NCBI GenBank assembly: GCA_963691655.1
Contig: OY829326.1
Coordinates: 14,372,878 to 14,436,877, forward strand
Origin: Toxonevra muliebris
Lineage: Eukaryota > Arthropoda > Insecta > Diptera > Pallopteridae
DNA: 64,000 nucleotides
Reading direction: 5' to 3'
Shown: positions 32,501-38,500 of the stretch, in pieces
Layout of the letters: every line of letters begins with the position of its first letter
How positions within the stretch are numbered: position 1 is the first letter of the stretch
Notes under the pieces: generated by a model
The model's input: the letters and a program-made list of their open reading frames with translations, nothing else
The model's database searches: none
What the model was told of the DNA's origin: nothing
Made by a program: the position numbers and the translations under genes

Positions 32501-35500
32501 TAACACGCGAGCAAATATCCGGTGGGAATTCAACAGTTGGATCGCGTGTCGACAAGAAAATAACAAACGATGGTGATAAATCGATATCTTGATCGCCGAG
32601 CGTGATGAGTACACGTCCACCAGTACGACGCAGCTCACGATTAAGTACAGGATTCAAAATTGGATCGTAATTTTCAACATCTTGCACCAACAATGGATTA
32701 CCGAAACGCAAAGCAGACTCCAAGTTCTTACGGAATGAATCATCCAAGAAGGAGGTTTTTGTAATTTTCTTGCCGGCATATTCGTTGAGCAAGAATGTTG
32801 TGGCTTGTCCAGATGGATCAATGATGAGTGGATAACGATTGAAACGCTTAAGCATAATAGCATTCTCAGTACACAGATCATCGGTCGGCAAAGCATTGGC
32901 TTGCCAACGTAAACGTTCGTCGGGATTAGAAAGATATTCAGTGCGTGCTATATCAGCACGATATTGTATGTTGGCCGATTGTAGATGTTGACTCCAAGTG
33001 GTAAATAGATTGAGACGATAGTGTTGATCAAAGTAACCGCCTTTAGAAGGAGGATTATAATAAATAGAAAACAATTTCTAATTGTGCATGACTTGCCACA
33101 TCAACAATTTGATTTACTTACCATATGCAATAAATGCAGCAGATAGCAAAACATCACCAATAATGGTAGACATCTGTGATTTGAATGTCTCACTGGTGCT
33201 TTCCCAACGCTCACGTTCAATATTCAAACTCTTGAGTAATGCAATCGACCGATCAACCTTTGCTTGCACATTCTCCAGATCGGTTTTAATCGCTTGTGCC
33301 TGCGAAATGAGCTGTGCATACTCTTCCTTGTAGGCAGCAATACTACGTTCCAATTGCTCAACCAAATCTCTAGTATCCTTCGCACTCTTTTTATTAACTT
33401 CAGCTTGTTCTTCCAATGAACGTAACTCTTCACGTAATGGCTCGACACGCTTCAACATATCGGCATATTCAATCTAATAAATTTATTAAGGTGATTAGAT
33501 CGTGCAAAACGGAAGATAGAATTTCAAATACAAAGTTCATACCTGAGCGATTGCCCATTTAACCATAGGACCACATGCCATACTGGCACGATTAACTTTT
33601 TCAAAATTGTAATCGGGATTACTTAAATATTTAGACTTCATCTTTTCGCGTACTTCATCGCTTTTGGTTTTTTTTTGTATATTTTGGGAAAGGAAAAAAT
33701 TTGTTAAACGAATATTTTTTCTAGATTTTTTGTAAGATCATGAACAAATTATAAACTGGATATAGTAAAGTGAATGAAATGCAAGCAAAGCAAATATTAA
33801 AAGTGAAAATATAAAATAAAAAAAAAATTGTTTTAAGCGAAAGAAACCAACACCAAAAGATTAAAAATTTAATTTCAATTAAAGCATTTTTATATGTATG
33901 TACAAAATCAACCAACACCATTGAAAAAAAAGTTATAAGTAAATAAAAGAATTCACATCACAAATCAAAAACCTTCTGCATGAAAAAATGTTGATTGATT
34001 TCTGCAACGCTCTAAAACACAACTACTTTCAAAAACTCAAAAATCAAACGAAAAAGGTTTTCACTACAATAAAAAATTAGCCAAAAACAACAAAAATTTA
34101 ACGAAAAAAAAAAAAATAAAATAATAAACAAATAATTTTATGTAGTAGATAAATATTTTTATAATAATCATCATGCTTACGTTATATTTTCAGTACCGAA
34201 GTTAGATACAATTGAATTTATAAAGTTTTCTCGCATAATAACGGCACGAATCGATTTCCAGTCGGTTGCATTCTCGCCCAGTAGCAAACATATCGATTCG
34301 AGTGCCAATTTCACCACCGATGGTGGATTAGCCATTGATCTCACCTCAACAAGTTGTTGTTTGCGTATAGATTTAACAGCTAAAGTGAGTAGTGAGTAGT
34401 AGTGGTAAGTAAATGTAGTTATTCTTTTTTCTGTTCAGTTTTTTTTTTACAATATTCTTATGGTTATTTACTTGGTTTTTACATAATTCACACTAAAAAC
34501 GACCCTTAAGGAGCGATTCTTAAACTAATAAATAATGCAGTATTTTGAACGGCGAAACATACGCCAAAAGACTTCAGTTCACCTCAAGGCTCACAATTGC
34601 ACACTGCATTTTAAATCTAAAGTGGAATCGAAAAATTTGGAACGATTCTACTCTTTTCCACAATTCCTAAAAAATTCTGGCCTTTGGTGTTAAGAATAAA
34701 GATAAATTAAAAATTATCGAATAGGCTACCAAAGTTCTGAAGGATTTTGATAACAAAAATGGTCAACGACGTCACTGTCAGAAATATTATGAAGTGTACT
34801 AGGAAAAAGTTACGGAAAAGAGTGGGAAAATAAAAAAAATATATATTGTTCTTAAACTAATTTTTCACATGACTCTCGTCTCTAATGAATTTACAGCGCC
34901 CTGATTTTTTTTTTTTTTTTTTGACAAGCAACAAAAACAAAAAAATTTGCAGTCGAATTCTGTCGAATTTTGCTGAATAAAGTATGATAAAAAATGGACT
35001 TTGTGTACAGTATTGTGGACAATTTGTAGTACAGTATTAGTATGGAAATATTACCAATACCGAGGTTACAGTGAAGCTTGAATTTTTCAACTGGGCGTGG
35101 CACCTCTCATATATAAAATATACAGCTTACTACTGTAACAAAATATTAAAATATTCATATGCTTCGGCATACAAAAAGGTCACTCGCTTTTGTAAAGTTT
35201 TGTTAAAAATATAAAGTTAAAAGAATTAAAACATTAGACATCAATACTTACAACATTTTGTTAAATTATTTTACTAGTACCTTAATAATAAATACTATTA
35301 AAAAATATTATAATACAAAAAAATAAATATGATTTATAATTAGCGGCTGCATTTGAACGCAGATAATATAGAAATATAAGTATAATTGAATAGGTAGTAA
35401 GGTACGGTGCTTGGCAATATGCGTAATGTGTGTGATTTAATGGGTGGGTGAGTGGTTGGTGGGTGTAATAGAGGATTTGGTGGTGAATGTAATATTGTTC

Positions 35501-38500
35501 ATATTATATAATTAATGATGCAAAATATGTAATGTATTTTATTTGATATAATTGAAGAGAATTCCGAATTCCTATATTCAGAGTAGTAAACATTTATGTA
35601 TACATAGGTACACGCAGTCGAAAAACTTTAAGCCAATTATTCTTGTTTATGATGTTGGTGGAGAGATTGATTGATTTTGTGAGTGTTTTGCGCATGATTA
35701 TGATGAGGTTATGTTTGGTGGTGTAAATAAAATAGAATAAAGTATTTTGCCGTACGTGATCTTGTCAGTTTCCAAATTAACAATTGACGATATGAAACCA
35801 TCTTTAACAATGATGCCACGGATTGCCTTCCAATCGGCTGCGCTCTCATTGAGCAACTCACAGACCGATTCCAAAGCTAATTTAACAGCTGGTGGTGGAT
35901 TGGCCATAGAACGTACCTCGGCCAAGTGTTTCTTTTTAATGGAGCTAACGGCTAAATATTTGAAGCGTTGAAATAAAAAATTTTATTATAAAAATGTGGG
36001 TACCAATAAAAAAAAAAAAGAAACAAATGAATGAGTTGTGTATCTCAGTGTGAAAAGACTGTGGGAGAGAAAAATTAGTGCTGTGGGAAAACATTAAAAA
36101 CGTAAATATATCTAGCCCTAATTCAAGTACGATGTACGCTCCTTTCAAATACAGACTAACAACTTAAGTTTAATAAAATTTCCAACTATTGTTTGATTCG
36201 TTAAGTGTTCCCTGACACGTTTTTTACCTTGTTGTGCTTCAATGACTGCCGGTTCCACTTGCGCCAAATCAGCCATTACATATTTACGCTTTTCCTCGAT
36301 TTTCACCGTTTGATCGGCCAATCGAATTTGAATTTCTTGTGATTGCAACTTTTTCTTTTCAGCCTCCTGTTGATCTTTGAACATTTGCTTGAGTTTAGCA
36401 TTAGCTGCTTCATTCTTAGCTTGTAGTTCTTGTTTCTTAACGGCCAGTGACTTCTGCATTTCCTCGACTTGTTCCACCGTTTCGGCGATCTTATTGAGAC
36501 CCACATTCAAATGCAATTGTTGCTCTTCCAAATCACTGCGCTTTTCGTTATACAACTTGACAAAATGATGTATGAAGTCTAAATAATGACGTGGCGTAAT
36601 AGCCATTGTGCGTCCGCCACGTTTGGCTAAACGTGCATTGGCTTGATGCAGTGTCTGATGCACGTACACACAACTGTTGATAACTGCATCGCGGTGATTA
36701 GGATGAGCTGGCACCAGTGGGCATACCGATGGGAAGAAGTCTGGCGCAGTCCATGTTGGTTTCTCCAAATCGACGCGAATTGTAAATTCTTTGCCAACTT
36801 GGAAAAGTGCTGAATCGGACCAATCACCAAACCAATTGAGTACGCAACGATTGAAAAGAGCCGGTGAGGTGGCAGCTCGATCTTTGAGACCATCAGTAGA
36901 GGGATTCATGGTGAAAACGACATGTAAATTGCGCATGACTTGCTGAGTAAACCTGTGTGAAGTGAAATATAAATGAATTTGGTGAAAGTTCAGAGATATA
37001 AACACTTGCAAATAGCATTCTCTTACCATTTGTACAACTCATCACTAGTATCCAACATCAGACCCTCTCGCTGAGCGCCCTCCTTACATTGTGTCATCAA
37101 CGTCGTGTATTCATCACCCTCAAATAAACCGGGTACTTCACCGTTTGCCAACAAAGTGTTCATACGTTCCAAGAAACCAGAATCTAAAACATTTGATTCA
37201 TCCAAAATGAAGGCAATCTTTTCATCTTTGCAACCGGATCGTCTCAGCACGCAACGCAAATCCTCATCGAAATCTTCGCTGGTATACTTATTGTGCACTT
37301 TAATTTGGAATATAGACAAACCATTCATCCAGGCAACAAAACGTGACAGCGTGGTCTTGCCAGCGCCAGAAACACCAATCAATAGTAAATGACCTTGCGG
37401 TTGACGGAAAATACGATCGATACGGAGTACATGCTCCAAAACTTCATCGAAGAGTACCAGTGGGACATCCAATTCTTCCTCATAGAAAACCTTAAGACGT
37501 GCACGCACATAATCACGTAGCTCTTCACGATTAACCGGCACGTAATCCTTAGACAACCAATTACTGTAAAGTATGGGACGAACTAGAGCCTCCTCTTGAT
37601 TAATGCCAGGGAAATGCTTGACAGCAACAATATCAATATTCTCATTGGTCCAGCGACGTTCTGATTCCTCAACAAGACGATCTTGGAAGAGACGCAAAGC
37701 TTCGTGTGCCCAGAGGCGCACTAGTCCTTCAACTGGTAGTGAATCCAATGGACGTATGGCTTCGCAAATACCACGTACCCAACGTGTCATTTCACGGGGT
37801 GAATAAACATAATGCGGTTGCATATCTTGAGTGAAACGATCTTGTGAAGCTAAGTAAAATTCAACCATGGCATTGGTTAGAGGTTCAGCATAGCCACGCA
37901 ACGCGGGCATCAAACGTAACATGGCACGTGAGAATGTACCATAGATCTGCTTAAGTGAAGTCTCGCCGGGATAATCAACATAAATGATGGGCACATGACG
38001 CAAGAAACGATGTGAAAGTGGCTTACGGCCAGGATCTGTAGGCGGATTGCAAGCGCCGACAAATTGTATGCGTTCGAGAGAAACCCATGCTTGATCGTTG
38101 GCACGATAGAAACCTTTATGCTCAACCAGCTGGCGCAAGAAAGATATGACACGCTGTGTCCCGTAATGATCCATATCAGGCAAATTGATTTCATCGCAGA
38201 ATAGAACAAGCCATTTACCAATCTAAAAGATGGAAGTATTCTAAATTATGTGCACAAGTATTCGGATTTCGCAAATATATACCTGCACTGGTGAAAGCAC
38301 AACTCCATTGGGGGTCTTACGATATTCGCAATAATGATCGAAAGTTTTGAGCAGTAACTCAGGTGTGGTGGCAGAGGAAAAGTTCAGGCCGACCACTTCC
38401 ATATCGGGTAGAGCGCGTAACGCAGAAAAGAGGGTCATTGTCTTCCCAGAACCGGGAGGACCACACAAAACTGAAAACATGTGAAATTTATATATAAAAA

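What the first reader, a model, noticed from the sequence alone, without database searches (positions are those of the whole stretch)
34181..35951. Two mutually exclusive exons for the dynein microtubule-binding domain
The single cytoplasmic dynein heavy chain gene contains two homologous exons (34,379-34,181 and 35,951-35,756, minus strand) for the same piece of the microtubule-binding domain. Both have GT-AG borders, both enter in phase 1 and leave in phase 2, and only one can be used without breaking the frame. They share 41 of 66 residues; helix-1 residues EVRSMANPP are fixed, while charges later in the domain differ (MRENFI versus VKDGFI, LLLGE versus ELLNE, NFGTEN versus LETDK). The fly could thus make two dyneins with different track affinity or stalk coupling from one gene. 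I do not know whether this is already annotated in Drosophila Dhc64C.
Basis: partly seen in the sequence, partly recalled or inferred. Interest (0 to 1): 0.88.

Follow-up and report, generated by a model that had tools for sequence, protein, structure and literature searches.

The report
Two swappable exons for dynein's foot
In this fly the gene for cytoplasmic dynein carries two alternative exons for part of the domain that grips the microtubule, and the reading frame allows only one per full-length transcript; relatives in other insects and similar twin copies in other animals suggest a widespread, little-studied way to build two dyneins from one gene.

Summary
In the dynein heavy-chain gene (minus strand), exon B (35951-35756) and exon A (34379-34181) are homologous (40 of 64 full codons), with AG/GT borders, phase 1 in and phase 2 out. 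Both lengths are 1 mod 3, so exactly one must be used: both or neither gives an early stop. Divergence is biased to third codon positions. Exon B is not a relic: a Drosophila ficusphila protein named isoform X2 has it (92%), as do four other named dipterans, and its borders look kept in unnamed contigs. The twin arrangement is older than flies: 15 of 178 collected proteins, from tsetse, moth, beetle, bee, stick insect, sea spider, mites, nematodes and a fish, hold two copies in tandem, and several vertebrate proteins carry a distinct second version. One origin or several is unresolved. The swapped piece includes helix H1, which moves on microtubule binding; a different grip or force response is likely but untested. 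No RNA reads were available. Predicted isoforms and one 2011 prediction paper precede this.

The parts
36228..36951 (-). upstream constant exon, part of AAA4 and stalk helix CC1 (5' limit approximate), ends in phase 1 at 36228
   Evidence: donor CAACAAG|GTAAAA and frame; D. ficusphila residues 3061 onward align from 36951; Pfam AAA_8 and MT stalk matches in this frame
35756..35951 (-). alternative exon B: start of MTBD ([19 protein letters not shown]...NLETDKI), 196 nt
   Evidence: 92% to D. ficusphila isoform X2
34181..34379 (-). alternative exon A: same segment ([19 protein letters not shown]...SNFGTENI), 199 nt, one residue longer
   Evidence: 95% to Musca isoform X3
33543..33660 (-). downstream constant exon: rest of MTBD ([13 protein letters not shown]...[17 protein letters not shown])
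   Evidence: sequence (donor GT at 33542-33541 counted by eye); frame; aligned to the mammalian MTBD
34380..35755 (-). intron between B and A, 1376 nt: too long for steric exclusion (inference)
35952..36227 (-). intron upstream of B, 276 nt
33661..34180 (-). intron downstream of A, 520 nt
29541..49007 (-). cytoplasmic dynein-1 heavy chain gene, coding extent by alignment to the D. ficusphila protein
   Evidence: tblastn; Pfam domains

Best explanation
Exons A and B are a mutually exclusive pair in the cytoplasmic dynein-1 heavy-chain gene of a higher fly. Each full-length transcript takes one of them between constant exons ending at 36228 and starting at 33660. Because both exons are 1 mod 3 in length and enter in phase 1 and leave in phase 2, a transcript with both or neither is frame-shifted and truncated (shown), so exclusivity is enforced at least by reading frame and, by inference, by nonsense-mediated decay; regulated splice-site choice is inferred. 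The swapped 65-66 residues correspond to human DYNC1H1 3296-3360. That stretch holds helix H1, which with stalk helix CC1 makes the main movement when the domain binds the microtubule, and (inferred) H2 and the loop leading to H3, while the later helices and CC2 stay the same. Most likely the two isoforms differ in microtubule affinity, detachment under load or stalk coupling, and are used in different tissues or stages (inferred).
For: Borders and frame. Homology beyond chance and protein-level constraint. Both variants occur in full-length relatives: B in D. ficusphila X2, Condylostylus X2, Hermetia X4, Megaselia, Calliphora; A in Musca X3, Episyrphus X3, Phlebotomus X3, Culex X2. 13 of 66 columns share no residue between 9 dipteran A and 6 dipteran B rows that I picked. 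Fly B exons form one supported clade of 12 rows, some unnamed (98/88, 100/99). Of 17 contig-encoded ORFs, 11 read on past the exon and all 11 continue Thr-Tyr-[Asp/Gly/Ala], as a kept GTAYG donor would; 5 of these have an identical 51-residue exon part but different intron tails. Fifteen of 178 proteins hold two copies in tandem, which I read as gene models forcing both exons in. H1 movement: PMC6629372 section 6. E3306 in H1, and an MTBD point mutation that changes force response: PMC11215527, passages.
Against: No RNA data for this species, so junction use and tissue pattern are unseen. Exon B is less conserved than A (mean pairwise 78% over 6 rows against 94% over 9 rows). No mechanism of choice was found: no intron pairing beyond low-complexity poly-U/poly-A, only a weak, uncorrected YCAY excess. 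Isoform names in databases may be automated predictions. The best tree does not unite fly B with the other insect copies that lack the insert.
Confidence: 0.88

Rival explanations
1. Exon B (or A) is a decaying duplicate that is spliced rarely or never and has no function.
For: No transcript evidence in hand; B evolves faster than A and has a non-consensus donor, GTACGG.
Against: Open frame, both splice borders and divergence biased to third positions; 92% identity to the B of a Drosophila species and presence in full-length proteins of five named dipterans; identical 51-residue exon part in five contig sequences with different intron tails.
Confidence: 0.05
2. Both exons are functional but the choice is not regulated: splicing noise plus nonsense-mediated decay yields a fixed mixture of near-equivalent motors.
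For: Frame enforces single use by itself; no regulatory element was found.
Against: Thirteen columns differ consistently between the chosen dipteran A and B rows, hard to explain if the isoforms were equivalent; two of them (human 3302, 3305) lie beside E3306 of helix H1.
Confidence: 0.15
3. B arose independently in flies and is unrelated in origin to the second copies in other insects, chelicerates, nematodes and vertebrates.
For: Fly B is a tight clade; in the one fish tandem model (labelled low quality) the human-like copy comes first, whereas here A, the copy closer to human (77% against 65%), comes second; other insect copies without the insert do not join fly B in the best tree.
Against: In the window and all five insect tandem models (Glossina, Spodoptera, Asbolus, Habropoda, Timema) the insert-bearing copy is downstream; fly B with other insect copies lacking the insert is not rejected as one clade (p 0.355).
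Confidence: 0.2

Closest known systems
Mutually exclusive exon in the cytoplasmic dynein heavy chain of Schistosoma mansoni (SmDHC1), Pillmann et al. 2011, PMC3228551 (passages)
   Same: Dynein-1 heavy chain, one internal exon with a homologous partner, split codons at both ends; called mutually exclusive from an alignment of more than 2000 heavy chains
   Different: The passages seen do not say that the exon is in the microtubule-binding domain; there the two copies have identical lengths, here they differ by one codon; a flatworm, not an insect
Database isoforms of dynein heavy chain (e.g. D. ficusphila isoform X2)
   Same: Carry exon B at the same place, 92% identical
   Different: Entries under an isoform name; no functional account seen
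Insect muscle myosin heavy chain (Mhc) mutually exclusive exons (PMC2257972, search listing and start of abstract only)
   Same: One motor gene makes several motors by swapping homologous exons
   Different: Myosin, with several exon clusters (PMC3228551 passage, for Daphnia); here one pair, in the track-binding tip of dynein
Dynein intermediate-chain splice isoforms (passages and reference list of review PMC10886578)
   Same: Splicing diversifies dynein
   Different: A non-catalytic subunit, not the motor's track-binding domain

Membership tests
Mutually exclusive exon pair | two homologous neighbouring internal exons of similar length | tested here: met
   199 and 196 nt, 40 of 64 codons with the same residue
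Mutually exclusive exon pair | same phases, intact splice sites | tested here: met
   phase 1 in, 2 out, AG/GT on both
Mutually exclusive exon pair | double inclusion and double skipping break the frame | tested here: met
   stops in both joins
Mutually exclusive exon pair | exactly one of the two present in mature mRNAs | not testable with these tools
   no RNA reads; full-length proteins with A alone or B alone exist in relatives
Competing-RNA-structure type of mutually exclusive splicing | docking site pairing with selectors near each alternative exon | tested here: inconclusive
   the only pairing above 60 shuffles is poly-U with poly-A; the other two intron pairs are within the shuffled range; one species only
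Steric-hindrance type of mutually exclusive splicing | intron between the two exons too short to splice | tested here: not met
   1376 nt
Cytoplasmic dynein-1 heavy chain | DHC_N1 and N2, AAA modules, MT stalk, C-terminal domain; closest to dynein-1 rather than axonemal dyneins | tested here: met
   Pfam matches in eight frames of the gene; the nine best PDB rows for each MTBD query are named cytoplasmic dynein 1 heavy chain 1; 94% to D. ficusphila over 1085 aa

The most novel reading that the evidence does not exclude
A splice switch in the microtubule-binding domain of cytoplasmic dynein-1 is a general feature of bilaterian animals, from a duplication at or near their base, giving two functionally distinct dynein heavy chains from one gene in most phyla; it may have been overlooked because the mammalian proteins studied structurally show only one version.
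Probability: 0.3. Interest if true: 0.87.

Novelty: new member of a known kind. Interest (0 to 1): 0.62.

Why it matters
Cytoplasmic dynein-1 is usually described as one heavy chain whose diversity comes from its other subunits (passages of reviews PMC10886578 and PMC6103457). A built-in switch of the track-binding tip would give cells two motors with the same cargo machinery but a different grip. A serine-to-cysteine change in the constant part of this domain blocks the metaphase-anaphase transition in fly embryos while sparing many other functions (fly S3372C), and the human equivalent S3386C lowers stall force by a third in an optical trap (PMC11215527, passages). Natural variants of the domain are therefore a direct way to ask which cell tasks need which mechanics. 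Fly dynein work that uses one isoform may miss the other (inference).

Tried and rejected
Third copy of the exon: none seen; the whole-genome six-frame search with B gave three hits at E <= 0.001: B, A, and a 30% match on C2 that overlaps a stalk-domain match there. Viral-contig scans for relatives with DNA context: none confirmed for B or A. Intron pairing as a selection mechanism: poly-U/poly-A only (0 of 60 shuffles as high), the other two intron pairs at chance level (28 and 16 of 60). RNA-binding motifs: nine patterns counted; YCAY in the 356 nt after B is 16 against 10.2 expected (p 0.034, mononucleotide shuffles, uncorrected), so not claimed. Deep origin: 65-66 columns cannot decide. 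In one search insect A (25 rows) is one clade (99/96); it is not (2 changes), and the insect copies without the insert need 4. One-clade tests: p 0.355 (fly B + other insect copies without the insert), 0.422 (all insects and Collembola), 0.274 (insect A + vertebrate second version), 0.52 (fly B + vertebrate second version); none is rejected and none is shown. Fly B falling near fungi is probably long-branch attraction (judgement). For the trees I used 77 and 60 rows, chosen from the 193 segments plus the two window exons. The one-residue insert is not a strict marker of A: Sitodiplosis, Planococcus, Psylliodes and one unnamed protein look like A without it.

I recalled that human K3336N and R3344Q are disease variants in the swapped stretch. 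The names are absent from the two papers I searched for them, so I make no use of it. Literature: ten searches of the open PMC library; none of the listed titles and abstract starts, nor the passages opened in nine papers, describes this exon pair. Several listings were capped (for example 25 of 71, 30 of 16,509 and 25 of 1,021), most subscription papers are not held, and two likely papers by DOI are not held, so absence in print is not shown.
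Full report
WHAT WAS CHECKED. The window lies in a 491-Mb genome (G000:C1:14372878-14436877) and holds a cytoplasmic dynein-1 heavy-chain gene on the minus strand, coding from about 49007 to 29541 by alignment with a Drosophila protein, with the expected Pfam domains (nine frames given, eight of the dynein gene and one of a leucine-rich-repeat gene). Over a 1085-residue stretch without introns it is 94.4% identical to Drosophila ficusphila, 93.5% to Episyrphus and 92.1% to Musca (ten dipterans compared). 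The organism is therefore most likely a higher fly, not necessarily a Drosophila.

THE TWO EXONS. Exon B (35951-35756, 196 nt) and exon A (34379-34181, 199 nt) have AG and GT borders. They follow a constant exon ending at 36228 in phase 1 and precede one starting at 33660 that completes a phase-2 codon. A alone and B alone give an uninterrupted MTBD. B plus A stops one codon into A, and skipping both stops after a few codons. So frame alone forces exactly one exon in a full-length dynein. The intron between them is 1376 nt, which excludes the short-intron (steric) type.

NOT CHANCE, NOT DECAY. Forty of 64 full codons encode the same residue. Identity by codon position is 47, 52 and 24 of 64; 21 codons differ synonymously and 24 change the residue. 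At E <= 0.001 three places in the genome match exon B: itself, exon A (E 2.8e-18) and a 30% match on another contig. A family search for the dynein stalk domain gave 28 exon-level matches over the genome, so other dynein genes are present, but none other than this one resembles dynein-1 closely in the exon B search.

RELATIVES OF EXON B. A search scoring exon B residues alone, at full-protein length limits, gave 46 proteins of 53 candidates. The dipteran ones with a B segment are D. ficusphila 'isoform X2' (92%), Condylostylus 'isoform X2' (81%), Megaselia (80%), Hermetia 'isoform X4' (77%) and Calliphora vicina '-like' (77%); a Glossina model has a 30-residue stub of B followed by a whole A. 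A search with exon A gave 243 proteins, of which the best 120 were listed and used, with A in Musca, Episyrphus, Phlebotomus, Culex and many other insects; the other 123 were not seen. The database is clustered at 90%, so usually one isoform per cluster is seen. A short search gave 17 exon-sized ORFs from contigs. Eleven of the 17 read on beyond the exon, and all 11 continue with Tyr and then Asp, Gly or Ala, as a GTAYG donor read through would. The nine that show sequence upstream are all compatible with an AG acceptor. Five share an identical 51-residue exon part with D. ficusphila while their intron tails differ. These are inferences from protein letters.

OLDER THAN FLIES. Of the 178 proteins collected contain the segment twice in a row: Glossina, Spodoptera exigua, Asbolus, Habropoda, Timema, Nymphon, Medioppia, Leptotrombidium, five Trichinella records, Trichuris suis and the fish Coryphaenoides, whose model is labelled low quality. 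Several copies are truncated or joined through what looks like intron sequence, as expected of gene models that force both exons into one reading. In the window and the five insect tandem models the downstream copy has a one-residue insert (IVSNF, VVNNF and the like); of 193 segments from all taxa 97 have the insert, 79 lack it and 17 are too short to tell. Schistocerca and Timema show both types across congeneric species (P0133-P0138 and P0174; P0068 and P0177). Among vertebrates, proteins of Danio 'isoform X2', Conger 'isoform X2', Erpetoichthys 'isoform X2', Onychostoma, Lampetra, Myxine, Ophiophagus and others carry a second version that is a supported clade apart from the one mammalian row (100/98 for 9 rows, 99/97 for 8 rows). 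I did not see both versions from one vertebrate species except in the Coryphaenoides model. Whether all this is one ancient duplication or repeated ones is not resolved: none of four one-clade hypotheses is rejected, and 65-66 columns give little power. Order argues against simple positional descent: in the fish model the mammal-like copy comes first, in this fly it comes second.

WHAT IT DOES. By alignment the exon covers human DYNC1H1 3296-3360. Cryo-EM work reports that the major movement on microtubule binding is of H1 with CC1, and that K3299 lies near beta-tubulin D427 (PMC6629372, section 6 read); E3306 is in H1 (PMC11215527, passages). That H2 lies in the exon is my inference. Between 9 dipteran A and 6 dipteran B rows, 13 of 66 columns share no residue: human positions 3302, 3305, 3324, 3326, 3329, 3337, 3340, 3341, 3343, 3344, 3349 and 3355, and the insert. 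Thus the swap changes H1 and the following segment, while the later part is constant, including the NRASMACG stretch, where by counting the human S3386 falls whose mutation makes dynein force-sensitive (PMC11215527, passages). Mechanism, in order of certainty: single use forced by frame (shown); both isoforms made (very likely, from relatives); choice regulated by cell type (inferred, no element found); different grip or force response (inferred).

KNOWN OR NEW. Pillmann et al. 2011 (PMC3228551, passages) use a mutually exclusive exon of the Schistosoma cytoplasmic dynein heavy chain as a test case, among what they call well-known genes; the passages do not name the domain. A Drosophila study mentions that Dhc64C has several maternally deposited isoforms, detected in D. 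pseudoobscura and D. miranda, without saying which (PMC5147784, one passage). Database isoforms already hold exon B. Ten searches showed no account of the pair's function, but the library is only the open part of PMC and several listings were capped. I file it as a new member of a known kind (mutually exclusive exons) with an unexpected phylogenetic reach.

Noticed in passing
P0007 (Calliphora vicina dynein heavy chain, cytoplasmic-like), MTBD: Carries a B-type segment and also differs in the normally constant part (KVDRASKACG instead of [10 protein letters not shown]); could be a separate gene copy that fixed exon B.
   Followed up: no
P0008 (Megaselia abdita) exon B: Has glutamine at the position of human R3344 (IMVQDGF), where the other five dipteran B rows have lysine and the nine A rows arginine.
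   Followed up: partly
window 35755-35400, minus strand: Sixteen YCAY motifs in the 356 nt after exon B against about 10 expected; possible Nova/Pasilla-type sites (motif recalled), not significant after allowing for nine motifs tested.
   Followed up: partly
G000:C1:14547382-14549773: Another dynein stalk-domain gene about 110 kb beyond the window's end on the same contig.
   Followed up: no
P0069-P0074 (Trichinella, Trichuris): The second tandem copy is very divergent (IRYLSSPPATVKLALEAVIFLFTG...) and sits on the longest inner branch of the tree; worth a separate look.
   Followed up: no
window 54418-59115, minus strand: A 1566-residue open frame with leucine-rich repeats, upstream of the dynein gene on the same strand.
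   Followed up: no
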